64,000 nucleotides of DNA from Aphelenchoides besseyi (lineage: Eukaryota > Nematoda > Chromadorea > Rhabditida > Aphelenchoididae). How positions within the stretch are numbered: position 1 is the first letter of the stretch; every line of letters starts with the position of its first letter. Positions 1-12,108 of the stretch are shown here, piece by piece. A model generated the notes under the pieces. It saw only the letters and a program-made list of their open reading frames with translations. It was not told the DNA's origin and did no database searches. Where the stretch lies: contig JAMPIQ010000001.1 in NCBI GenBank assembly GCA_024699855.1, positions 8,184,001 through 8,248,000 on the forward strand. Reading direction: 5' to 3'. The position numbers and the translations under genes were made by a program.

Positions 1-321
1 ACATTCAACAAAGCACCTGCTGGTACGCGCACAATGAAAAACCAATTGATTGCGATGAAGGAATTCAATGATTATTTTCCCAAACCACCGATAAGCAACA
101 CCAAATCGTCTCGGAACATGAGCGGAAACGGTCGGCCACAAACAAAAAAGATCCGCAAAAGAAATTTGGCCGCAGAAATCAATCTTGCGCCAAAATCGAC
201 GATCATCAATATGAAAGGAAGAGGACTGTTGCGCAGGAAAGTTTTGAAACCGAAACAATCATCTCGAACTTTCAAATCGAAAGCGCTTTTGAGTTTTCGT
301 CCCAAAGTTTGGTTGTACTGA
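1..321 (+). CDS. Basic protein, 5' truncated by window edge
   Basis: The frame is open from base 1 to the TGA at 319-321; an internal ATG lies at 34 (95 residues from there). The visible part is rich in Lys, Arg and Ser with almost no acidic residues. Because the frame continues to the edge, this may be the C-terminal tail of a larger element gene rather than a complete small protein. No family is recognised. The next gene begins after a short gap with a canonical 37-nt intron-like segment (354-390) just before its ATG. Confidence 0.4.
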   Translation, partial: TFNKAPAGTRTMKNQLIAMKEFNDYFPKPPISNTKSSRNMSGNGRPQTKKIRKRNLAAEINLAPKSTIINMKGRGLLRRKVLKPKQSSRTFKSKALLSFRPKVWLY

Positions 322-391
322 TCCCTTTTTTTTGTATTCGTCAACGATTAAATGTGAGTTTAGAGTTTTGTTTATTTCAATTGGTTTTAGA

Positions 392-1228
392 ATGGAAAAT
401 TTTGTCGACTATTTTTGTTCTCTGGATACGTTGATTTCGTTGCGCAAACGATCGGATGCAGCCAATCGGCCGATCGACTACTCGAATCCTCTACCGACTC
501 GGCTGATCGAATACTCAACCCGTAACTTCAATTTTGATTTATTCGGTGGAAACAACGATCGCGCCCTCAGATTCCAGCAGTTCATCGTGGAATCACCGCT
601 CACAATCCAACCGTTTGAAGACCTTGGGGCTGATGAATTCGATCACATTGAAGATGGCGCTTGGGACAAGAGAACCATTTTTGTTTATTTTGGGAAACAA
701 AAGATTCCTCTGAAAATGCGAATCACGGAACTAATCGTTATTGCTCAACTCGTGAATCTACAGAACCTCAAAATTAACGCGCTCGACGTTCCGGAATTTG
801 CATTAGCGTGTCTATTCGAGCTCTATTTGGTTACTACTCTCGCTCATGTCGTACTACAAGGAAATATTCGAAGCGTCAATGATTTGCGAATGTGGACAGA
901 AATGATAGAGTGCTGCATTTTTACATTCGAAAATGTCACGTTCATCAGTCATTACGACACACTCAACACTTCAATTATTCCGGCCAGTGATCGCTACAAA
1001 ATCGTCATGACCGAACACACTCTCTGGAATTACGTGTCTTTCCATTATGCATTGGACGGAAACGAAGATCACTGGACAGCCGCTTCAAATCTCTACCGTG
1101 ATCCGTTCAAGCAGTTGTTTGCCGCAAACAACGGAACTGACGAGTTGAATGGTCGTCAAACAGCGACGGTTACCATTTCAACTATATTTTTTCCAAAAGT
1201 CAACAGTACAAATCACCAAATTCTATAG
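392..1228 (+). CDS. Unknown 278-aa protein of the Polinton element
   Basis: Uninterrupted frame of 278 codons. The start at 392 is chosen because it directly follows a good acceptor (TTGGTTTTAG ending at 390) of a 37-nt intron-like segment at 354-390, probably in the 5' UTR; the frame is open a little further upstream but without an ATG. It is a mixed-composition, probably globular protein with no signal peptide or evident membrane segment; a hydrophobic Leu/Ala-rich stretch lies mid-protein (about 950 nt region upstream half). I recognise no family. An AATAAA at 1254-1259, 26 nt after the stop, marks its 3' end. Its position beside the integrase suggests an element-specific accessory or structural role, which is inference. 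Confidence 0.6.
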   Translation: MENFVDYFCSLDTLISLRKRSDAANRPIDYSNPLPTRLIEYSTRNFNFDLFGGNNDRALRFQQFIVESPLTIQPFEDLGADEFDHIEDGAWDKRTIFVYFGKQKIPLKMRITELIVIAQLVNLQNLKINALDVPEFALACLFELYLVTTLAHVVLQGNIRSVNDLRMWTEMIECCIFTFENVTFISHYDTLNTSIIPASDRYKIVMTEHTLWNYVSFHYALDGNEDHWTAASNLYRDPFKQLFAANNGTDELNGRQTATVTISTIFFPKVNSTNHQIL

Positions 1229-1253
1229 TTGCGATTGTATTTTTTTGCGAATC

Positions 1254-1259
1254 AATAAA
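1254..1259 (+). terminator. AATAAA polyadenylation signal
   Basis: AATAAA in the context AATAAACTTTGG, 26 nt after the stop of the 278-aa ORF. The same AATAAACTTT context recurs at the protease end (6427) and after the last element ORF (6992), and similar AATAAACTT signals follow host genes (about 12180 and 54200). Confidence 0.6.
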
Positions 1260-1335
1260 CTTTGGCGTTAACATTTTTTTCCATTTTATCTTATAACCGA
1301 ATTTTGCGTTCGCATCGTAGAGTTGTGTTCCAATA

Positions 1336-2453
1336 ATGAGTGTCGATGAGAATGAGCGTAAACTCATACTCAATGCCTATCGATCGCTCGATTCCTCCGC
1401 CGCTTATTCCGCTGTTGACAATCTATGGCGAGTTTTAAGGCCAAAGAGAATTTCGCGCGCGAAAATCGTTCGAGTATTGGAAGAGGATCGAACTGCTTCA
1501 CTTCACAAGCCTCGACGCTATCGTTTCAAACGTTTGAAAACCAAACCAGCGGGCTTCTACACCGATGCTTGCATGGATTTGATGTTTATGCCCGAACTTG
1601 AGCATTGGAACAATGGCATGCGCTACGTATTGGTTTTAGTTAAAGGCTTGAGTCGACGAATATTTACACAACCTCTACAAACCAAAAAGCCCGAGGATGT
1701 TCTTGAGGCGTTAAAGAAAACTTTCGAAGAAGCCGACTACCTTTTCTGGTCGGTGTTTAGCGATTTGGGCAAAGAGTTCAAGAATCAAAAGGTCAAAGAG
1801 TTTTTGTCTTCACTTCAAATTACTCAAAAACTTGCTCACAACGCAGAGACCAAAGCAGCTTTGGCTGAACGGGCTATAAGAACATTGAAACAGTGGGAGA
1901 ATTTTGGTTTTCTTTTGTAATCCAAAAATTTAGACGTCTGTACAAATACATGAGTGAAAAGAACACTTATCGTTGGATCGATGCTCTCCATCCGCTAACT
2001 CTCGCTATTAATCGTTCGCCAAATCGCACTCTTGGCTTTCGGCCACTCGATGTGAATATCGCAAATTGGAAAAATGTGTGGGATCGTCTGTACGCTAATG
2101 ATCTGAACACGAAACCCTCGAAACTCAAAGTCGGTGATCATGTTCGAATTTCAAAGGCAAAAACTCAATTCTCCAAAGGCTATCACCCTGCGTGGACCGA
2201 TGAAGTATTTCAAATTTCTAAAAAAATACCAACAAATCCTACAACTTTCCGACTCAAAGATTATCATAACAATGAACCTTCGGGCCGATTTTACGCGCAT
2301 GAACTTTCAAAAACCACAATGGATACCACGTGGCGTATTGAACGAGTTTTGAAGACGCGCACTCGACGTGGGCGTCGACAGCTGTTTGTTGAATGGAAGA
2401 ATCACCCCGCTTCTGATAACTGTTGGATAAATGAAAGCGATTTGATTGATTAG
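1336..2453 (+). CDS. Polinton DDE integrase with C-terminal chromodomain
   Basis: Retroviral-type integrase of the Polinton class (relatives in C. elegans are annotated as transposon-derived protein F54H12.3). Exons 1336-1892 and 1934-2453, joined across a 41-nt intron (GTGGGA...TTTAG) give 358 residues; without splicing the frame stops at 1918-1920. The rve core shows the three acidic residues: Asp in CMDLM (about residue 79), Asp in FSDLGKEF and Glu in AALAERAIRTLK. The last 45 residues, starting near TTWRIERVLK and containing LFVEWKNH and CWINESDL, are a chromodomain, which in such elements is thought to steer insertion to chromatin. The next gene starts 24 nt downstream. The frame is intact. 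Confidence 0.9.
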
Positions 2454-2477
2454 TTTGTTATTGTCCTCCACAACGTC

Positions 2478-3955
2478 ATGTCGTTCGACCAGCGATTCAC
2501 AGTTATTTTACCGTCGAACACTTTTGGTTACACGAACCGCTCGAACAGTTTTCGCGTTCAACTCCTAAAAACTCTGCACTTTTACGATGGCAGTTGGCAA
2601 GTGGGTCTGCCTAACGTCTTTTACACCAAAAGTTGGACGACCATAGACTCCAAAACACCTCAATGGATAAAAATGAGGGATACTACGGGCAATATTGTAA
2701 CTCTTAAGGTCGATGCGGCAACATTTCATACAGTCGAACATATGGCTCAACACTTGACAAGCATTATGGCCGCCGTACAAACGCCGCGTATTCGACGTTC
2801 TGTCCGATTGACTGATGAACAAAATACGCAAATCGAAAAAGCTCAGCAAGAATGGAGTATCAATAAGTCAGCGTACGATCGTGAAGTGGAGGCTATACGC
2901 GAAAAACAAAGAGCCGTCGACGAAGTGAATGTAAAATTGGCTGAAAAGACGCGCAATCACGATGCGTTGGAGACCGATATAAAGTCACTCGAAAAGAACG
3001 ACGGCGACCTGGCAGTGCTCGAGGAAAAACGTCTTCAATTAGAGCAACTGAGCAACGAGATTGCCGCCGATGAGGAACATTTGAAAACACTGGTGGCAGC
3101 CGTGGCGTCCCAAGACGATCTTATCCAAATTGCCCGTGAAGATGCTACGAATAGTTTGAATGCTCTAAATGCACTGTATGCCAAGTACAACACGAACGAA
3201 GAGCAAATAAGTGCAGGCGTTCTCGACGCTCAAGCAGCTGAAGAAGAAGAAGCGGCGTTGGCGAACGAAAACAACATTGCAGCGAACGACCAAGAGCTGT
3301 TGTCAGCTGTTGTCAGCTGAAGAAACGAACAGGGAAGATGAAGAAATGGATACAACACCTACGACAGAAAAGCCACCGGCTCCCGAGAATATGAGCGAGT
3401 ACGATGAGCAAATTGCCATATTGAACGAGCTTAACAACGTTGAAGACATCCCGTTTACGGAAAAGATACCAGCCGGAAGTGGCTTTGTTTTCGACAATAT
3501 GCGAAGACGTTTTCGCTTATATTTAGACCCAAAAGTTGAATATGTTCAGTTGTCTGAACAGTTGGCATACACGTTGGGGTTCGAGAAGGATAGATTGTTG
3601 GTTCACGGCAGTTTTGCTCGTTATGATTGCGATCTAACAGGTGATAACAACGACTACTATTGAATGCAAGATTTTTTCAGGAGGCATTTCACATTTTGTC
3701 ATTTATGCTCCCGGCCTAATCGAGCCTTCTATTTTGGGCGACAAAATGGTTTCCGTTTTACAGGTAGTCAATGTTTCCGGAAATCAAGGCGAATCGGCGG
3801 AGTGCTATTTCGAACAACCAACTTTCTATCCGCTTGCCGTAAAAGAAATCAACACAATAGACATTGAGTTGCGCACGTTGGCCGGAAAACTGTTGCCCAT
3901 ACAATACGGACATACGATAGTGACTCTGATGTTCCGTCGTGCTCCAATTTTCTAA
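2478..3955 (+). pseudogene. Polinton minor capsid (penton-type) gene, frameshifted
   Basis: The N-terminal part carries the family pattern of Polinton minor capsid proteins (FTVILPSNTFG..., then GSWQVGLPNVFYTKSW) and the C-terminal part the matching end (HFVIYAPGLIEP, ... FYPLAVKEINTIDIELRT, LMFRRAPIF). Between them is an insertion of about 130 charged residues with strong coiled-coil character (residues about 115-245). A perfect 10-bp tandem duplication (CTGTTGTCAG at 3297-3306 and 3307-3316) shifts the frame by one and the first frame ends at 3318-3320; the second frame continues to 3640, where a canonical 40-nt intron (3641-3680) leads to the last exon. The break would separate the two conserved ends, so this copy probably makes no normal protein, unless the duplication is an assembly error. 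Confidence 0.75.
3297..3316 (+). repeat. 10-bp tandem duplication causing frameshift
   Basis: Two perfect adjacent copies of CTGTTGTCAG. A net +10 changes the reading frame by one exactly where the upstream minor capsid frame stops and the downstream frame takes over. It is far too short to be a spliceosomal intron. Confidence 0.85.
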
Positions 3956-4002
3956 CTCACATTCTTCTGTTCGCGTTCCATTGAACGGTTGTTGTATTTT
4001 CC

Positions 4003-4008
4003 AATAAA
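4003..4008 (+). terminator. AATAAA polyadenylation signal overlapping next start region
   Basis: AATAAA 48 nt after the minor capsid stop and only 2 nt before the ATG of the following small basic protein at 4011. The spacing implies that the cleavage site of the upstream transcript lies inside the next coding region. Confidence 0.45.
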
Positions 4009-4010
4009 TA

Positions 4011-4484
4011 ATGGTTCAAACATTGTTCGATCCGGATACCGTCGATTATGTTCGCTTTTTTCGCGAGTTTGATAACATGCAGCAAATAGGCGGCGGCTCG
4101 TTGACGCACGACTATTTTGCCGGACAACCGTTTATGCGCGGATTTGGCCGAACGGCGCAGAGCAGCGCCGGTTTTGCCGATCTGTTACAGGCACTTTGGC
4201 GACGGCTGATTCCGATGGCAAAAACGGCCGGCAAAGTCATTGGACGTGAAGGTCTGCACGTTGGTTCACGTATTCTCAACGATTTGGCCGAAGGTAAACC
4301 GCCCACAAATGTCATCGAAGAACACTCACGTGTCGGCTTATCGAACTTGGCGGATAGAGCGTCTCGTTCGCTCAAAGGTTCAGGACGAAAACGCCGTACC
4401 GCCATTTCATCTACACAACGTCTCCGTGGACGGTCGGTTCCGGCGAATATTGCGGCTAAACGGCGACGTGATATTTTTGTCTAA
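4011..4484 (+). CDS. Small basic core/minor capsid protein of the element
   Basis: 157 residues. The N-terminal half has a Gly-rich stretch and the segment RGFGRTAQSSAGFADLLQAL followed by a helical region (WRRLIPMAKTAGKVIGREGL, then HVGSRILNDLAEG) typical of the small Polinton protein that sits next to the major capsid gene and is compared with adenoviral core/cement proteins such as pX or pVI. The C-terminal half is strongly basic, including KGSGRKRRT and AAKRRRD, fitting DNA or capsid-interior binding. It stops 2 nt before the ATG of the major capsid gene, so expression of the two is probably linked. The family assignment rests on pattern and position. Confidence 0.7.
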   Translation: MVQTLFDPDTVDYVRFFREFDNMQQIGGGSLTHDYFAGQPFMRGFGRTAQSSAGFADLLQALWRRLIPMAKTAGKVIGREGLHVGSRILNDLAEGKPPTNVIEEHSRVGLSNLADRASRSLKGSGRKRRTAISSTQRLRGRSVPANIAAKRRRDIFV

Positions 4485-4486
4485 TC

Positions 4487-5836
4487 ATGTTGTTCAAAAC
4501 GATCGACGGCGATAGTCCCAAAACCATTACATCGGCTTTGAATCTATTTACCATACCCTCCACGGATGTCAGTTTTTCATCCGCCTTCTACCGCGAAATA
4601 CTTGCGACGAACAGCGTTGAACAGTTTCCGTTTCATTTCAAAGTTCTCAGCGGCAACAGTTACATTAGTCTTAACGACAGTTACTTTGTTACCGAATTCC
4701 GTATAACACGATCCGATGGCAAAACGTTGGAAGCCACCGACACACCTGCGGCTATTCAAGCGATAAGAAGCACTTTCATAAAAAACTGTCGAGTTTTGAT
4801 TGGCGGCCGTGAGGTCTATTCGGGAAACGGATTGAGTTCGTACAAATCGCATTTTGATCTGTTATTGTCGAATGGACACGAAGCCAAAACATATCCGCTC
4901 AGTGAGGTCGGCTATTTTCCGTACGCCGATGCGGAGAGCGAAACGGATTCGGGCCTTATTTCAAGCCGCAACATTTTTGCTTTAAGCAAACCGTGTCAAC
5001 TGATTAGCAAAGTACCTGCCGACGTGTTCAATCAGGATCTTTTGTTGGTAAACGGTGCCGAAATGGACATTTTCTTGAGACCGAACTCTGATGACTTTTG
5101 TATTTTTAATCCGGGCGCCGCCGCCGGCTCCACTTACAAGCTACAAATAACGAAATGTCGTTTGTATTGCAAATTTTTCAATCTCATAGACAACCTATCG
5201 TTGACGATGCATGCACAGCTGGAACAAACTCCGGCAAAATACCCGCTTCGTCGAACACAAATGAAGCATCTCATCATAACCGAGGGTCGAACAGATTTTC
5301 ACGCGAACATTTTCGGTGATCAATGTCCACGGCGTATCGTTTTGGCCATGGTTTCAACAGCGGCGTTCAATGGCGCACAGTCAATGAACCCGTTCAATTT
5401 CAAGCCGTACAACGTACGTGATATTACCATAACAACGGCCGGAATCGATTATCCATCGGTTTGTTCGAATTGGTCGTTTTTCGTAATTCTTTTTTTTTAG
5501 ATTCCATACGAAATGAATTACGATGATGGTCAACAATACGTGAGAGCTTATCACGACATGTTAATGGCCACTGGTTACGCGTTCAACAATTCTTCTAACG
5601 CCATTTCGCTTAAGCAATTTGAATCCGGTTGGAACATTTACTGTTTCGATTTAACGACCTCGTTGTCGAGCACCAGTGCTACTTTTGATTTGATTCGACA
5701 TTCGCCAACAAACCTACAAATGAAATTTCGAAAACCAATTCCTCAAGGAGGTGTGGTTCTCTTAATTTATGCCGAATACGACGCTATTCTAACTATTGAT
5801 AAGTTTCGGCAAGCGAGCTCGGACCTCATTATTTGA
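4487..5836 (+). CDS. Polinton major capsid protein (double jelly roll)
   Basis: Exons 4487-5458 and 5501-5836 around a 42-nt intron (5459-5500, GTTTGT...TTTTTAG, phase 0) give 435 residues. Relatives in animal genomes are annotated as F54H12.2-like. Recognisable parts are the N-terminal segment leading to PFHFKVLSGNSYISLNDSYF, the loop with RSTFIKNCRVLIGGREVYSG, and the C-terminal VLLIYAEYDAILTIDKFRQ, the usual end of these capsid proteins. Family knowledge: trimers of a double jelly-roll fold build icosahedral capsids. The frame is intact. The small basic protein ends 2 nt upstream and a membrane protein starts 4 nt downstream. Confidence 0.85.
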
Positions 5837-5840
5837 AAAA

Positions 5841-6104
5841 ATGGACGTTAACGACACCTTGCCGTTTTGCGATCCTTCTAATCTGATTACTCACGAAGGA
5901 ATTTTACGGTGTCTATTATACGTTTTGATTGGCGCTATTCTGTTGATTCTCGGAGTTTTGTGCCGATCGGCTTTGGAGGTGTTGTCTTCACATCTCAAGA
6001 ACTATGAACGAGATAACAATGGAAAGATTGTTGAGTCGTTTGCCGTCAACTCGCCATATCTTTCGGGGATGCCATCCGATAGACCAGATACCTCGAAGCC
6101 GTAG
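5841..6104 (+). CDS. Small single-pass membrane protein of the element
   Basis: 87 residues from an ATG 4 nt after the major capsid stop. A hydrophobic segment of about 21 residues (ILRCLLYVLIGAILLILGVL, residues about 20-40) is followed by a polar tail. The last third overlaps the protease start by 101 nt in another frame, so the tail sequence may be fixed by the overlap, or the true 3' end may be spliced differently. No family is recognised. Its place between capsid and protease genes suggests a virion or membrane-associated role, which is inference. Confidence 0.5.
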   Translation: MDVNDTLPFCDPSNLITHEGILRCLLYVLIGAILLILGVLCRSALEVLSSHLKNYERDNNGKIVESFAVNSPYLSGMPSDRPDTSKP

Positions 6105-6441
6105 TTACCCCCATATGTTCATTCTCAACCACGACCCACATCACATGCCTGGAAGTCATTGGTGTGCCGTTTACGTTTGTTCGCCGTCGACTGCCGAGTA
6201 TTTTGACAGTTTTGCGGACAAACCTCCAAAACCAATTTCCGAGTTTCTGAACAAGTTTTCTTCCGTTACAACCAACAAGTTTTGTTTTCAAAAAGCCACG
6301 AGCGAAGTTTGTGGTCATTATTGTCTATTTTTTTGTATTCTACGTTCGCTCGGAATCGCAATGAATGAAATTGTTCACTATTTACGAACTTTGCATAACT
6401 CTGATGTTAATGTTTTTCATTTGGTCAATAAACTTTTGTAA
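6004..6441 (+). CDS. Adenain-type cysteine protease of the element
   Basis: 145 residues, the usual compact size of Polinton proteases related to adenovirus maturation protease (family C5). The catalytic set is visible: His52 in PGSHWCAVY, Asp68 in AEYFDSFAD, Gln96 in FCFQKATSE and Cys103 in VCGHYC; the Gln-to-Cys spacing of seven residues equals that of adenain. Family role: cleavage of capsid and core precursors during maturation. The ATG at 6004 is supported by the conserved N-terminal pattern (HIFRGCHPIDQIPR). It overlaps the upstream membrane protein by 101 nt. An AATAAA lies inside its last codons (6427-6432). All key residues are intact. Confidence 0.88.
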   Translation: MNEITMERLLSRLPSTRHIFRGCHPIDQIPRSRSYPHMFILNHDPHHMPGSHWCAVYVCSPSTAEYFDSFADKPPKPISEFLNKFSSVTTNKFCFQKATSEVCGHYCLFFCILRSLGIAMNEIVHYLRTLHNSDVNVFHLVNKLL

Positions 6442-6511
6442 TTATGCTGACGTGTAACAAATTTGCATAATTTTAACGAAACGCCAAAAAAACCCCATTT
6501 TCACATCATTC

Positions 6512-6925
6512 GTGTTCAATTTGGTTGTGAAAAAAAGATGCAACAAACGTTCGTCCCGCTCGTCGGCTAACTCAAGGGGAACTGTGGTATTTGGGCTCAA
6601 TGCCCTCCGGAAACGGAATGCCGAGCATTTCATCGATAAGATTTTGTTGACCTTCTTAGAAGCTAATGAAAACATTTCTAGGTACAACCGTGTCCCTCTA
6701 ACATGTTTCCGTAAGACATTCAAAGAGGAGGATCTTGTCAGCGTCAAGAATTGTTCTGATGATCAAACCGATCATATCCTTTGGGCCATTATCGCTATTC
6801 TCGCTGTATTGCTCGTTTTCACAACAATCCAATGGTTCCGCTACTGGCGTCGATGCAACGGATTACGTGAGAAATTGGATGCCCTCGAGCCACCACCGAA
6901 ACCGAACGTCCAAAATGCCGAGTAA
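6512..6925 (+). CDS. Single-pass membrane protein, last ORF of the element
   Basis: 137 residues. A hydrophobic segment of about 20 residues (ILWAIIAILAVLLVFTTIQW, residues about 88-107) is followed by an Arg-rich stop-transfer (RYWRR) and a Pro-rich tail. There is no signal peptide, so topology is unclear; the layout resembles the end of a type I membrane or envelope-like protein. An acceptor-like TTTCTAG ends just before TACAACCG near 6681, so the first part could belong to a different exon structure. I do not recognise a family. AATAAA at 6992 follows. Element membership is inferred from strand, spacing and the shared 3' motif. Confidence 0.45.
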   Translation: MFNLVVKKRCNKRSSRSSANSRGTVVFGLNALRKRNAEHFIDKILLTFLEANENISRYNRVPLTCFRKTFKEEDLVSVKNCSDDQTDHILWAIIAILAVLLVFTTIQWFRYWRRCNGLREKLDALEPPPKPNVQNAE

Positions 6926-6991
6926 TTTTTTGTTGTTGTTTACGGCACCTGTTTTTTTTCTCTGCCGTCTGTTTGTTGTTCGTGTTTAGGA

Positions 6992-6997
6992 AATAAA
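6992..6997 (+). terminator. AATAAA polyadenylation signal
   Basis: AATAAA in the context AATAAACTTTGG, 66 nt after the last element ORF; same extended context as at 1254. Confidence 0.5.
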
Positions 6998-7474
6998 CTT
7001 TGGTGTCTGAAGAACAAATTTCAATAGTAAATTTGATCAACAGGCGTGCAAAAACCGGACTAAAGAGTTGTAGAAAGAAAACGCGACAATTCAGCACTGT
7101 AAGTTTCGCACTCCCATCAAATTTCGCGATCGAATGACACCGATTTTGTACTATTCAAAATTGTTTTTTCAATTGCAAGCGTTTGTTTCGATAAACAACT
7201 TAAACGATCACAAAAAACATCTGCTCACATGGGTTATGCTCCCGCGAAAATTTTCTTACGAAATGAACAACTGTTTTGAAGCTCAAAAATAATAGAAATT
7301 GACAGGTGGATGATTGATGAGTTTTTCGCGATTTCGGAATACTTTTTTTTACGAACACTACGTAATAAACTACGGTTACTGTATTCTTGTACCTTATTAG
7401 TGGGTGGTGTATGGTTACTGTATTGTTTAAAAAATCCTTATGTATGTCTATACTTGACAATTTTTGATGGATAT

Positions 7475-7670: not shown

Positions 7671-8973
7671 TTTCTTCTTATGAACACAACGTAACAGACT
7701 ACTACCAAGCAATGATTTCGCACCACATAGAAGATAATATAACTGTTTTTGTAGTTGCCTGATGATACCACCATGATTTTGAGCCTCATCTATATCGCTC
7801 GAAAGATTCAGTGCAATGCGCCCTAAAATAAAGTCGACTTAAGATAATACGGCAAATAAGAACCTGTGAAAATTCTGCTAACAGCCGAGAACTCGTCTGC
7901 GTACTCGTGCTCGTATTCAATTAGAGCCACACATTGTACAATTAGTAGTCGATTCCAAGTTTGAATCTCCTTCAACGTTAACTTGAAGGACGTTGCCCAG
8001 GTCCCAATCTCTTTGTCCTTTATTGCTGAGACAGAGAATTTCTTCTCGTTGCCACGGTAGTATAATACACCAAAATGATAGATCCGGTACAATTGAGACG
8101 CGCGCAGGTCTCATGAGATCAACTGAAGACTATTGGTTAGAAGGACCCGTGATAATAGAAAAACTAACCAAGTATTTGGAACACTCGAAAGCTGATATCG
8201 TCTTGTCGTCTGGACGGCGACACACATACTTGATCCTGTTTAAGCAAAATTGCTTTTGAGTAGATAGTTCATTTTTCTCCAGACATTTCGGTTCAAAAAT
8301 GTACCAGAGCACAATAAAAGCTCGACTGATCGGTTGGGTGAAAGTGGGATGAGTGAGTGACAAAAAAGGCAAATCGGCGTCCCCACCGCATATCACTTGG
8401 TGGGCGACGCGGGAAGAAATCGCGCAAACGCCCTTTTTGCCGCGTCCAAGCCGGAAAGGACCAACTGACCGGTGCGGATATTGACCACTGACGCGTTTGT
8501 CGAAAAAGCGTCAAAAGTTACTGACAAGAACTTGGCGTTTCATTTATTATGCATAAGTACAAGTCATCGATCAATCGTACTTATCTTTCTCCATTTCTCT
8601 GCTGTCTAGCAGGTATAGAAATACAAAGTCATTAACTTAGATGCCATACTTATGACAAACCCATAGATTTTGCTTCAAACGAAATCTAACGACTAAGAAA
8701 ATTCTTTGTTATCTCAACGTAATCATACTATCGTTTAATTTAAACGGAGTTTTTAAACGAACGTGCGTTTAATAAGAAAACTTAAGGTTTCTGTTAGGTT
8801 TTCAGTGAATACAATTTTGAGTCTTGTTGTCAATAAAGTGGACATAAAATTGATTCTTGTGTCTTGTGACGACTGTTATCTCTGGCTTCCAATTGCTTAT
8901 CCATGATATCTAACAAAAGTGTACTTATAGATGTTAATTATTATTAGTTGTTTTGACAGTCAATTTTAGGCCG

Positions 8974-9932: not shown

Positions 9933-12108
9933 ATGAGTGTGGAAAGTTCGTGGAGAACGAAACCGCTAACTATGAAAGAAAACGTTAAGGAAAAGTGAGT
10001 TTCAGTTTTGATTGACATTTCAAGTTAACTATCGAGTTTTAGGTTACCCATAGAAGGAAAACGCAATGTCCTGATCACGGCCGCTCTTCCGTATGTCAAC
10101 AACGTCCCTCATTTGGGAAACATAATCGGATGTGTTCTCAGTAGCGATGTTTTCGCTCGGTATCGTTTATTTCTTCAGCATTGCATAATTTCGTATTTTT
10201 GTTAGTTTTTGTCGTATTCGTGGATATCAATCGCTACATATTTGTGGAACGGATGAATATGGAACGGCAACCGAAATGAAAGCGTTAAAAGAAGGCATGA
10301 CTCCCGAGGAGATCTGCTCGAAATTCTACGAACTGCACAAGGGAATTTACGAATGGTTTGGAATCGACTTTGATTATTTTGGACGTACAAGTACGGAGAA
10401 TCAAACTGAGTAAGAGGTTTCAATTGTGTTCATTGTGAAACTTATGTTTTAGGATTTGCCAAGACATCTTTAATAAATTGTATCAAAACGGTTTTACTTC
10501 TAAATCGTCGACTCCGCAATTACATTGCTCAAAGTGCGAGAAGTTCTTGGCGGATCGTTTTGTCTTTGGAACTTGCCCACATTGTGGATTCGAAGACGCA
10601 CGCGGTGATCAGTGTGATAAGTGTGCAAAGTTGTTGGATGGTGTTGATTTGATTAATCCGAAATGTCACATTTGTGGAACAACTCCAGGAGTCGAAACGT
10701 CTGAACACATTTATCTCGACTTGAGCAAACTTTCGGCTAGTTAAAATCCCTCGTTTATTATATTGTTTCGAATGGTTTAGCCAAAAGTGGAAGAATATCT
10801 TAACACGGTAATGGAAGTACCATCCAGTCATTGGTCGTCGAATGCGATTTCGATTGCACGCGGTTGGTTGAAGATTGGACTTGAGCCACGATGCATTACA
10901 CGCGATTTGAAATGGGGAACCAAAGTGCCATTACCGGGTTTTGAAAACAAAGTAAACGGAAAGGTTTTTGTTCACTTTTTGAATTGTTTAATTTAGGTCT
11001 TTTATGTTTGGTTTGATGCGCCCATTGGTTATCTTTCAATGACGAAAACATTGTTGGGTGACAACTGGACGAAATGGTGGAAGAATCCCGAGCAAGTTGA
11101 ACTATTTCAATTTCTTGGCAAGGATAATGTGGCTTTTCATTCGATTGTCTTTCCGGCTACACAAATGGGTGCCAACGATAACTTCACAATGATTCGTCAC
11201 TTATGTGCCACCGAGTATTTGAATTACGAGGATCAGAAGTTTAGTAAATCGCGTGGAACGGGCGTTTTTGGTGATTCGGTAGCTGAAACGGGAATTCCGG
11301 CGGATGTTTGGCGTTTTTATTTGATTTACATGCGACCAGAAAGTCAAGACACAAAGTTCTCGTGGGATGACTTTTTGAACAAAGTTAATTCCGAGGTAAT
11401 TGAAAGATTGTTTTGTAGTTATAATCACGGCTATTTGTTTAGCTATTGGCTAACTTGGGTAATTTTGTGCTTCGTGCAATAAAATTCATCAAGAGCACGT
11501 TCAACGGGATCGTTCCGAAGGTTGTGTTTAATGATGAAGATCTCGAACTTGTGAAATCAATAAATGAACTCATCAAGGAGTACACTAACAATATGGAGCA
11601 GGTCAATATGCGTGAAGCATTGCAAAATGTTCTTTCGATATCTCGTCTTGGCAACAAATACATGCAAGATAATAAACCGTGGGAGTTGGCTAAAAACGAG
11701 GAAACCGAGTAAGTTGAAAGGTTTGTGATACTGAAACGACATTTTTTAAAGAGAACGAGGTGGTAGTGTTGTTGCTTTATCTGCCAACATATCTATCTTG
11801 TTGGCCACTTTGCTGTATCCGTTTATGCCAACGGTCAGTAAAACGATTCGCTCTCAATGTAAACTCGAGTCTCCGTTCCTTCTTCCCGAACATTTTGTTC
11901 AATTTCTTCCCGATGGATGGGAAATTGGCGAGGTAAAAACAGGATGTTCGATCAATGTATAATTTTTGTTTAGCCAAAACCACTCTTCGAAAAGTTAGAT
12001 CCGAAAAAGATCGAAGAGTTCAAGAAACGATTCGGAGCTCAAGAAGCTCAACCGCCACAGATTTCAAAAAGAGCTGCAAAGAAGGCGGCCAAAGCTGCGA
12101 AAGCGTGA
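9933..12108 (+). CDS. MARS1: Methionyl-tRNA synthetase, cytosolic
   Basis: Charges tRNA-Met with methionine in the cytosol. Exons run from ATG 9933; introns at 9995-10042, 10160-10205, 10410-10452, about 10740-10787, 10952-10996, 11396-11442, 11709-11751 and 11933-11973. The class I motifs are clear: HIGH as [11 protein letters not shown], the CGTDEYGT block, a zinc-binding insert with paired CxxC (CSKCEKF, CPHCGF, CDKCAK, CHICG), VWFDAPIGY, and KMSKS as KFSKSRG. The protein lacks the N-terminal GST-like and C-terminal WHEP extensions of the vertebrate enzyme, ending instead in a Lys/Ala-rich tail. The fourth intron's acceptor is ambiguous: TTTAG at 10780 is canonical but breaks the frame, AAAAG at 10787 keeps it. 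Confidence 0.95.

What the first reader, a model, noticed from the sequence alone, without database searches (positions are those of the whole stretch)
1..6998. Nematode-embedded Polinton/Maverick with capsid, protease and membrane genes
Seen: integrase, minor and major capsid, small core protein and adenain-type protease on one strand within 6.5 kb, with two ORFs for single-pass membrane proteins and one unknown 278-aa protein. Known: Polintons encode virion proteins, and nematode Mavericks have been linked to horizontal gene transfer. Inference: this is a recent or selectively retained virus-like insertion, because most frames are intact. The three unknown ORFs are the best candidates for undescribed virion or envelope functions.
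Basis: partly seen in the sequence, partly recalled or inferred. Interest (0 to 1): 0.75.

Follow-up and report, generated by a model that had tools for sequence, protein, structure and literature searches.

The report
Intron-bearing nematode Polinton, non-autonomous copy
A nematode chromosome carries a virus-like jumping element whose shell and insertion genes appear to have picked up short host-style introns; this copy kept its ends and shell genes but lost its own DNA polymerase and packaging motor.

Summary
It has inverted ends AGTAGT…ACTACT and a perfect 6-bp target duplication, ACCAAG. The host is a nematode (57 cuticle-collagen matches).

The main correction: three "gaps" between frames are not decay. 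They are 40–42-nt GT–AG introns (by sequence; no RNA seen) in integrase (1893–1933), penton-like minor capsid (3641–3680) and major capsid (5459–5500). Sister copies share them; other Polinton lineages in this genome lack them at the same sites, so they look gained.

This copy cannot act alone. It has no polymerase B or packaging ATPase, and a short tandem duplication shifts its penton frame. A module with a kinase-like gene and Helitron-linked sequence fills the replication side. A sister copy at C3:2.00–2.02 Mb has both missing genes.

The 278-aa gene is lineage-specific: no relative was found among 5.8 billion proteins (word-limited search). Its fold is unsolved.

Known kind; the intron gain and the helper-dependent mosaic sublineage make it a new variant.

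The parts
1..321 (+). 3' end of a basic, low-complexity protein gene of about 370 aa that starts left of the window (ATG at C1:8183212)
   Evidence: open frame runs on from L009:9188-10000; the L009 part is 97-99% identical in DNA in three sister copies; no family hit for the L009 part
392..1228 (+). 278-aa unknown, lineage-specific gene
   Evidence: intact and 99% and 96% identical in copies C1:3911311 and C3:2013867, 98% but in two pieces at C3:8930335, 49% in C3:6535380, 39-41% (and a 52% piece) at C3:5.295 Mb; no relative in a word-limited search of 5.8e9 proteins
1336..1892 (+). integrase exon 1 (rve core)
   Evidence: Pfam rve 4.9e-8
1893..1933 (+). 41-nt GT-AG intron (by sequence) in the integrase gene
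   Evidence: same site in 5 of 5 copies, 37-42 nt, interior diverged in L027; read through without insert in L055, L056, L057; L058 frame-shifted nearby, no insert seen
1934..2453 (+). integrase exon 2 (with chromodomain-like C terminus)
   Evidence: Pfam Chromo 2.1e-5, just under cut-off
2478..3640 (+). penton-like minor capsid gene, first exon, frame-shifted by a short tandem duplication
   Evidence: two units in window, L004 and L007, one unit in L002, unit not found in L003 and L008
3641..3680 (+). 40-nt GT-AG intron (by sequence) in the penton-like gene
   Evidence: 40 nt in 5 of 5 copies read; absent in the one second-lineage homologue read, L008, at the same codon
3681..3955 (+). penton-like minor capsid gene, last exon
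   Evidence: 48% identical to L008
4011..4484 (+). core-like (virion-internal) protein, 157 aa, named by position
   Evidence: dN/dS 0.12 against L003 copy, 11 changes; no family hit
4487..5458 (+). major capsid protein exon 1
   Evidence: 27 relatives; double jelly roll by model of relative P0001
5459..5500 (+). 42-nt GT-AG intron (by sequence) in the major capsid gene
   Evidence: 39-43 nt with GT-AG in 6 of 7 copies, the seventh (L053) has an altered acceptor; absent in 7 of 7 copies of the other two lineages
5501..5836 (+). major capsid protein exon 2
   Evidence: continues exon 1 in register with intronless relatives
5841..6104 (+). 87-aa single-pass membrane protein, overlaps the protease start
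   Evidence: open, no indels, in window, L002, L004, L005 and L007 copies; indels in L003
6004..6441 (+). adenain-like cysteine protease
   Evidence: Peptidase_C48 E 0.0058 below cut-off, S273R E 0.019; candidate His/Asp/Cys present
6533..6925 (+). open frame with one membrane helix, no ATG in frame; gene structure unclear
   Evidence: frames, alignment with sister copies
7675..7703 (-). right terminal inverted repeat (outermost 29 bp); element ends at 7703
   Evidence: matches left end at C1:8174802
7704..7709 (+). 6-bp target-site duplication ACCAAG (other copy at C1:8174796-8174801)

Best explanation
The window starts inside a 16.9-kb Polinton/Maverick copy in a nematode chromosome. Shown: it inserted as a unit with inverted AGTAGT ends and a 6-bp target duplication; its right half carries integrase, penton-like, core-like, double-jelly-roll major capsid, membrane and protease genes on one strand. 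Shown: three of these genes hold 40-42-nt GT-AG gaps at sites where other Polinton lineages are continuous. Inferred: these are spliceosomal introns gained within this lineage and removed by the host. Shown: polymerase and ATPase genes are absent from this copy but present in a sister copy. Inferred: the copy was mobilised in trans by a sister's PolB while supplying, or borrowing, integrase. It belongs to a sublineage in which a module with a kinase-like gene and Helitron-linked sequence replaced the ATPase region. At least two copies of that sublineage sit at separate insertion sites although both lack an ATPase and share a broken penton frame, so its spread inside this genome probably did not need its own virions.
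For: Ends and duplication; 4 of 4 copies with both ends read show a perfect 6-bp duplication (window ACCAAG, C3:2.0M GCTGCA, C3:6.5M GCTTTG, C1:3.9M GTCTCG). Families and fold. Introns: same position in copies; lengths not multiples of three in 2 of 6 canonical capsid, 5 of 5 penton and 4 of 5 integrase introns; absent in other lineages. The capsid intron sequence (25 bases, up to 3 mismatches) occurs at 7 places in the whole genome, the 7 capsid copies. Constraint on exons: dN/dS 0.07-0.31 for the major capsid between the window and five other copies. Missing replication genes: best E 6.8-9.8 in this copy, while the same ATPase query finds another lineage's ATPase at 2e-57 and the same polymerase query the decayed polymerase of the C1:3.9M copy at 5e-135. 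Shared module and junction. Penton duplication shared by 3 copies.
Against: No RNA data, so splicing is inferred. In the C3:2.0M copy the integrase and capsid introns happen to be multiples of three (42 and 39 nt), and its integrase frame reads through. One of seven capsid copies has an altered acceptor. Penton intron absence was tested in one copy only. dN/dS between the window and the two closest sisters is 1.1-1.3 for integrase exon 1 on 10-11 changes, and exon 2 has 3 amino-acid changes and no silent ones, against ongoing constraint on this copy. Penton and core identities rest on position and a homologue, not on a fold. The shared penton duplication could also have spread by gene conversion: the same copies are mosaic (capsid dS 0.04 to one sister, 0.11 to another). 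The left end of the C3:8.9M copy is truncated, so its insertion was not checked.
Confidence: 0.85

Rival explanations
1. The three short gaps are small insertions or decay in a dead element, copied to all sisters from a dead master, not introns.
For: The window copy has other lesions (penton duplication, lost replication genes); no transcripts examined; one capsid copy has lost the acceptor.
Against: All three begin GT and end AG at exact homologous codon junctions, are 37-43 nt, and several are out of frame while flanking exons stay open and mostly constrained. The L027 integrase intron keeps both borders with an unrelated interior.
Confidence: 0.12
2. The introns are ancestral and were lost from the other lineages.
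Against: Capsid: 7 of 7 copies in two other lineages and 9 of 9 database proteins that reach the site in alignment A2 are continuous; integrase: 3 of 4 copies clean, the fourth frame-shifted nearby but without an insert. Vertebrate Mavericks are reported intronless (PMC8097293, passage).
Confidence: 0.1
3. A recent, autonomous virus-like insertion.
For: Capsid, integrase and protease frames open; perfect 6-bp duplication.
Against: No polymerase or ATPase in this copy, broken penton frame, Tc1-like insertion with 191-bp perfect repeats inside it.
Confidence: 0.03

Closest known systems
Polinton/Maverick elements (vertebrate Mavericks as described in PMC8097293, passages read)
   Same: (AGT)2//(ACT)2 ends, 6-bp duplication, integrase, protease, two capsid genes; polymerase and ATPase in sister copies
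   Different: that paper reports no introns in the genes of intact vertebrate elements, in agreement with Kapitonov and Jurka 2006 (as it says); here three genes have introns by sequence, and there are extra genes between the small conserved ORF and integrase
Nematode Mavericks with fusogen and wosp/krma cargo (Widen and colleagues; known here only from the meeting report PMC10680173, one passage)
   Same: nematode host, capsids, integrase; a kinase-like gene sits in the left module of this copy (likeness to krma is recalled, not tested)
   Different: no fusogen found (search uninformative); 12 of the 16 matches of one kinase-like exon lie away from the three Polinton copies that carry the module; wosp not tested
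Polintons with jelly-roll capsids (PMC4028283, passages read)
   Same: double-jelly-roll major capsid and a minor capsid gene near it
   Different: the penton-like protein here carries a long coiled-coil-like insert (my reading of the sequence); its fold was not tested

Membership tests
Polinton/Maverick | RVE-type integrase | tested here: met
   Pfam rve E 4.9e-8 over cut-off; chromodomain-like C terminus just under cut-off
Polinton/Maverick | terminal inverted repeats | tested here: met
   outer 29 bp plus an inner stretch of about 104 bp in this copy; 1067 bp at 98.8% in the C3:6.5M copy; only 29 bp aligned in the C3:2.0M and C1:3.9M copies
Polinton/Maverick | 6-bp target-site duplication | tested here: met
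   4 of 4 copies with both ends read
Polinton/Maverick | family-B DNA polymerase in the element | tested here: not met
   absent from this copy; matches in sister copies at C3:2005234, C3:6541781, C1:3922709. The copy is filed as a deletion derivative of a Polinton lineage, not as a complete member
Polinton/Maverick | A32/FtsK-like packaging ATPase in the element | tested here: not met
   absent from this copy; present in sister copy, L042:1401-2063 (Pox_A32 E 3e-4, 20.8 bits against a cut-off of 22.8; 43% identical to L020, which is over the cut-off)
Polinton/Maverick | double-jelly-roll major capsid protein | tested here: met
   model of the 428-aa relative P0001, about 50% identical; PBCV-1, Sputnik, mavirus capsids. 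The window protein itself was not folded
Polinton/Maverick | single-jelly-roll penton protein | tested here: inconclusive
   position upstream of the major capsid gene and homologue in L008; fold not modelled
Polinton/Maverick | adenain-type protease | tested here: met
   weak family and PDB matches below usual cut-offs, candidate catalytic His, Asp and Cys present
Nematode Maverick with fusogen | fusogen gene | tested here: inconclusive
   PF03273 found nothing in this genome nor in the controls, so absence is not shown
Nematode Maverick with krma cargo | krma kinase gene | tested here: inconclusive
   exon-like pieces at C1:8178.6-8179.8 kb; no Pfam match over cut-off for the four pieces scanned; likeness recalled

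The most novel reading that the evidence does not exclude
A DNA virus-like element lineage gained three spliceosomal introns in its integrase and two capsid genes while living in nematode germlines, and uses them as a host-splicing gate: without splicing no integrase or shell is made. A sublineage then gave up virion genes (ATPase lost, penton broken) and spreads only inside the genome with sister copies as helpers, a virus turning into a pure transposon.
Probability: 0.25. Interest if true: 0.75.

Novelty: new variant of a known kind. Interest (0 to 1): 0.47.

Why it matters
Polintons are thought to sit between transposons and DNA viruses. Introns gained in capsid and integrase genes would mark a long life under a host spliceosome, and intron gains are hard to catch: here presence and absence occur side by side in one genome. 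The helper-dependent mosaic sublineage makes it testable whether Polintons move inside a genome without making particles.

Tried and rejected
Fusogen search by PF03273: nothing, and controls silent, so uninformative. Homologues of the 278-aa protein: 306 candidates from the single sequence, none at E 0.01 or better; 2804 from the alignment, none at E 0.1 or better; PHROGs, NCBIfam and PDB sequences nothing; Pfam nothing for the window protein, and for the L027 relative only Fox-1_C at E 0.004, under its cut-off, which I take as chance; single-sequence model pLDDT 32, not used. IMG/VR scan with P0001: no relative. A tblastn for relatives of the 370-aa gene printed nothing, not even itself, so I treat it as failed and use the DNA matches. 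The first idea, that the left module was a simple cargo insertion, was dropped after the same module was found next to Helitron-type helicase genes. In one search I set aside three rows whose alignments hold frame-breaking gaps or stops (integrase exon 2 against L027, membrane ORF against L003, protease against L018; dN/dS 1.0-1.3). Papers: Widen 2023 and Jeong 2023 are not held. Searches for Polinton with introns or intron gain (listings only) showed no paper on such introns; the library holds open-licence papers only, so 'not in print' is not claimed. Host species not determined.
Full report
WHAT IS THERE. The window is C1:8184001–8248000 of a 47.4-Mb genome in 31 contigs. The host is a nematode: 57 matches to the cuticle-collagen N-domain, none in the 14 control genomes. 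The finding's ORFs are present. The window edge cuts the element. I read 10 kb to the left (L009) and found the other end.

ENDS. The inverted end motif (AGTAGTCTGT…) stands at C1:8174802 and at window 7703. ACCAAG stands directly outside both ends. Length is 16,902 bp, including a Tc1-like element with 191-bp perfect inverted repeats (L009:7685–9202; HTH_Tnp_Tc3_2 E 8e-5, below cut-off). Four of four copies with both ends read have a perfect 6-bp duplication, each with its own letters, so each is a separate insertion. The C3:6.53–6.55 Mb copy has inverted repeats of 1067 bp at 98.8%; in the C3:2.0M and C1:3.9M copies only the outer 29 bp aligned. The end motif and 6-bp duplication agree with those given for vertebrate Mavericks (PMC8097293, passage).

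GENES. Order on one strand in this copy: left end; module X; a 121-aa small ORF (L009:7309–7674); Tc1-like element; a gene of about 370 aa that crosses the window edge; the 278-aa gene; integrase; penton-like; core-like; major capsid; membrane ORF; protease; a second membrane frame; right end. Integrase and chromodomain. Protease. The major capsid has no Pfam match but 27 relatives. The relative P0001 was folded with an alignment of 12 rows (pLDDT 79.3, pTM 0.81) and matches PBCV-1, Sputnik and mavirus capsids. Among viral models the first hit by E-value is a Cotesia bracovirus protein at 21% identity, though with a TM-score of only 0.38; an adomavirus protein (rank 3) and a MELD virus protein (rank 6) follow.

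COPIES AND LINEAGES. The capsid search gave 19 matches (a lower bound, as the tool says): 8 matches from 7 copies of the window's lineage (89–100% identity), 8 from 4 copies of a second lineage (40–51%), 3 from 3 copies of a third (30–32%). In the second lineage at C2:1.98M the order ATPase, small ORF, integrase, penton, major capsid is the same, but the small ORF and integrase are only about 0.5 kb apart, there and at C2:2.02M. The 278-aa and 370-aa genes therefore have no room there: they look like additions of the window's lineage. In the window's lineage the 278-aa gene is in this place in the copies at C1:3.9M (99%), C3:2.0M (96%), C3:8.9M (98%, in two pieces) and C3:6.5M (49%); pieces at 39–52% lie at C3:5.295M beside a small ORF.

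INTRONS. Integrase 1893–1933, penton-like 3641–3680, major capsid 5459–5500. (i) All start GT and end AG. (ii) In copies: integrase 5 of 5 (41, 41, 42, 41, 37 nt); penton 5 of 5 copies read (all 40 nt); major capsid 6 of 7 (42, 39, 41, 43, 42, 42 nt), the seventh having an altered acceptor. (iii) The two capsid exons, aligned as separate rows, meet in register with intronless relatives: P0001 and eight further proteins. (iv) Other lineages are continuous at the same sites: major capsid 7 of 7 copies, penton 1 of 1, integrase 3 of 4, with the fourth frame-shifted nearby but without an insert. (v) The first 25 bases of the capsid intron, with up to 3 mismatches, occur at 7 places in the genome, all in this capsid gene; the reversed pattern occurs nowhere. 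(vi) The L027 integrase intron shares both borders but not the interior. The simplest reading is gain in this lineage. Against: no RNA was examined, and in the C3:2.0M copy two of the introns are multiples of three, its integrase frame reading through. That host genes use introns of similar size is my reading of the neighbouring methionyl-tRNA synthetase frames and general knowledge of nematodes, not a measured distribution.

WHAT IS BROKEN. Polymerase and ATPase are absent from this copy: tblastn with the L011 and L013 polymerase frames and the L042 ATPase gave nothing better than E 6.8 in the two parts of the copy. The penton frame is shifted by a tandem duplication of a short unit, shared with the copies at C1:3.9M and C3:8.9M; the C3:2.0M copy has one unit and the C3:6.5M copy no exact unit. 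Near the second membrane frame, an ATG-led frame in the window ends at a stop that the two alignable sister copies lack; whether it belongs to the same gene is unknown. None of the copies is singled out as intact.

MODULE X AND MOSAICISM. L009:1906–7200 is about 96% identical in the copies at C1:3.91–3.92M and C3:8.92–8.93M, and all three pass from X into the small ORF at the same point, L009:7213. In the C3:2.0M copy the same side carries polymerase, ATPase and a further unknown gene region. In the C1:3.9M copy a decayed polymerase is still left of X, and no ATPase was found in the pieces searched (L019, L032, L046). The C3:8.9M copy is truncated at its left end. X also occurs at C2:4.80M and C2:17.3M beside helicase genes of Helitron type (PIF1 E 2.5e-55 for L041; L040 90% identical to it in DNA; the name Helitron is recalled). 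X's right 450 bp is a repeat with at least 18 further places (40 of 188 candidates scored). X holds exon-like pieces of a gene that I read as a nematode kinase-like gene, like the krma cargo named in PMC10680173 (passage). This likeness is recalled; Pfam gave no match over cut-off for the four pieces scanned. One piece has 16 matches in the genome. Mosaicism: against the C3:6.5M copy, dS is 0.09 in capsid exon 1, 0.21 in exon 2 and 0.87 in protease, while the 278-aa proteins are only 49% alike.

SELECTION. Window against the C3:2.0M copy: dN/dS 0.25 (278-aa, 21 changes), 0.24 (integrase exon 1, 13), 0.45 (integrase exon 2, 5), 0.25 (penton part, 10), 0.50 (core, 5), 0.31 (capsid exon 1, 19), 0.27 (capsid exon 2, 2), 0 (membrane ORF, 2 silent), 0.52 (protease, 3). 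Against the two sisters of the same sublineage: 0.84 for the 278-aa gene (4 changes each), 1.1–1.3 for integrase exon 1 (10–11), integrase exon 2 three amino-acid changes and no silent one, but 0.16–0.25 for the penton part, 0.33 for core, 0.16 for capsid exon 1, 0.18 for exon 2 and 0.63 for the membrane ORF (3 changes). Small numbers. The left genes fit relaxation in the ATPase-less sublineage; penton, core and capsid do not, which I put down to mosaicism. Past constraint on the lineage is the safer statement.

HOW IT MOST LIKELY WORKS. Established for the family (recalled knowledge): protein-primed copying by PolB, integration by the RVE integrase at 6-bp staggered cuts, shells from double-jelly-roll and penton proteins matured by the protease. 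Inferred here: transcripts of integrase and both capsid genes need host splicing; this copy moves only with replication proteins from sister copies; the presence of the sublineage at separate sites (window and C1:3.9M have different duplications) with the ATPase gone and the same penton break suggests movement inside the genome without own virions. Gene conversion between copies is the alternative.

PAPERS. PMC8097293, PMC4028283, PMC11118728, PMC11071308, PMC10680173: passages only. Widen 2023 and Jeong 2023: not held; the first is known here only through PMC10680173, the second only as a reference entry in PMC11071308.

Noticed in passing
L009:7685-9202 (C1:8181685-8183202): Tc1-like element with 191-bp perfectly complementary inverted repeats, inserted between the small ORF and the 370-aa gene; probably very recent.
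   Followed up: partly
L041:2-2627 and L040:2-1680: Helitron-type replication/helicase frames (PIF1 E 2.5e-55 in L041) directly beside module X; X and the Polinton left end may have been captured by or fused with a Helitron.
   Followed up: partly
L042:3407-4408 (C3:2.011 Mb): Unknown gene region between ATPase and the small ORF in a sister copy, with intron-like breaks and no Pfam family over cut-off; possible cargo.
   Followed up: no
L009:4635-5807: Kinase-like exon pieces (likeness recalled); one piece has 16 matches in the genome.
   Followed up: partly
window:7571-7660: Purine-rich GAGA-type simple repeat just inside the right terminus, seen also in two sister copies.
   Followed up: no
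window:10781-11709: Methionyl-tRNA synthetase gene pieces of the host (tRNA-synt_1g E 2.5e-39 for 11039-11482), about 3 kb beyond the element.
   Followed up: no
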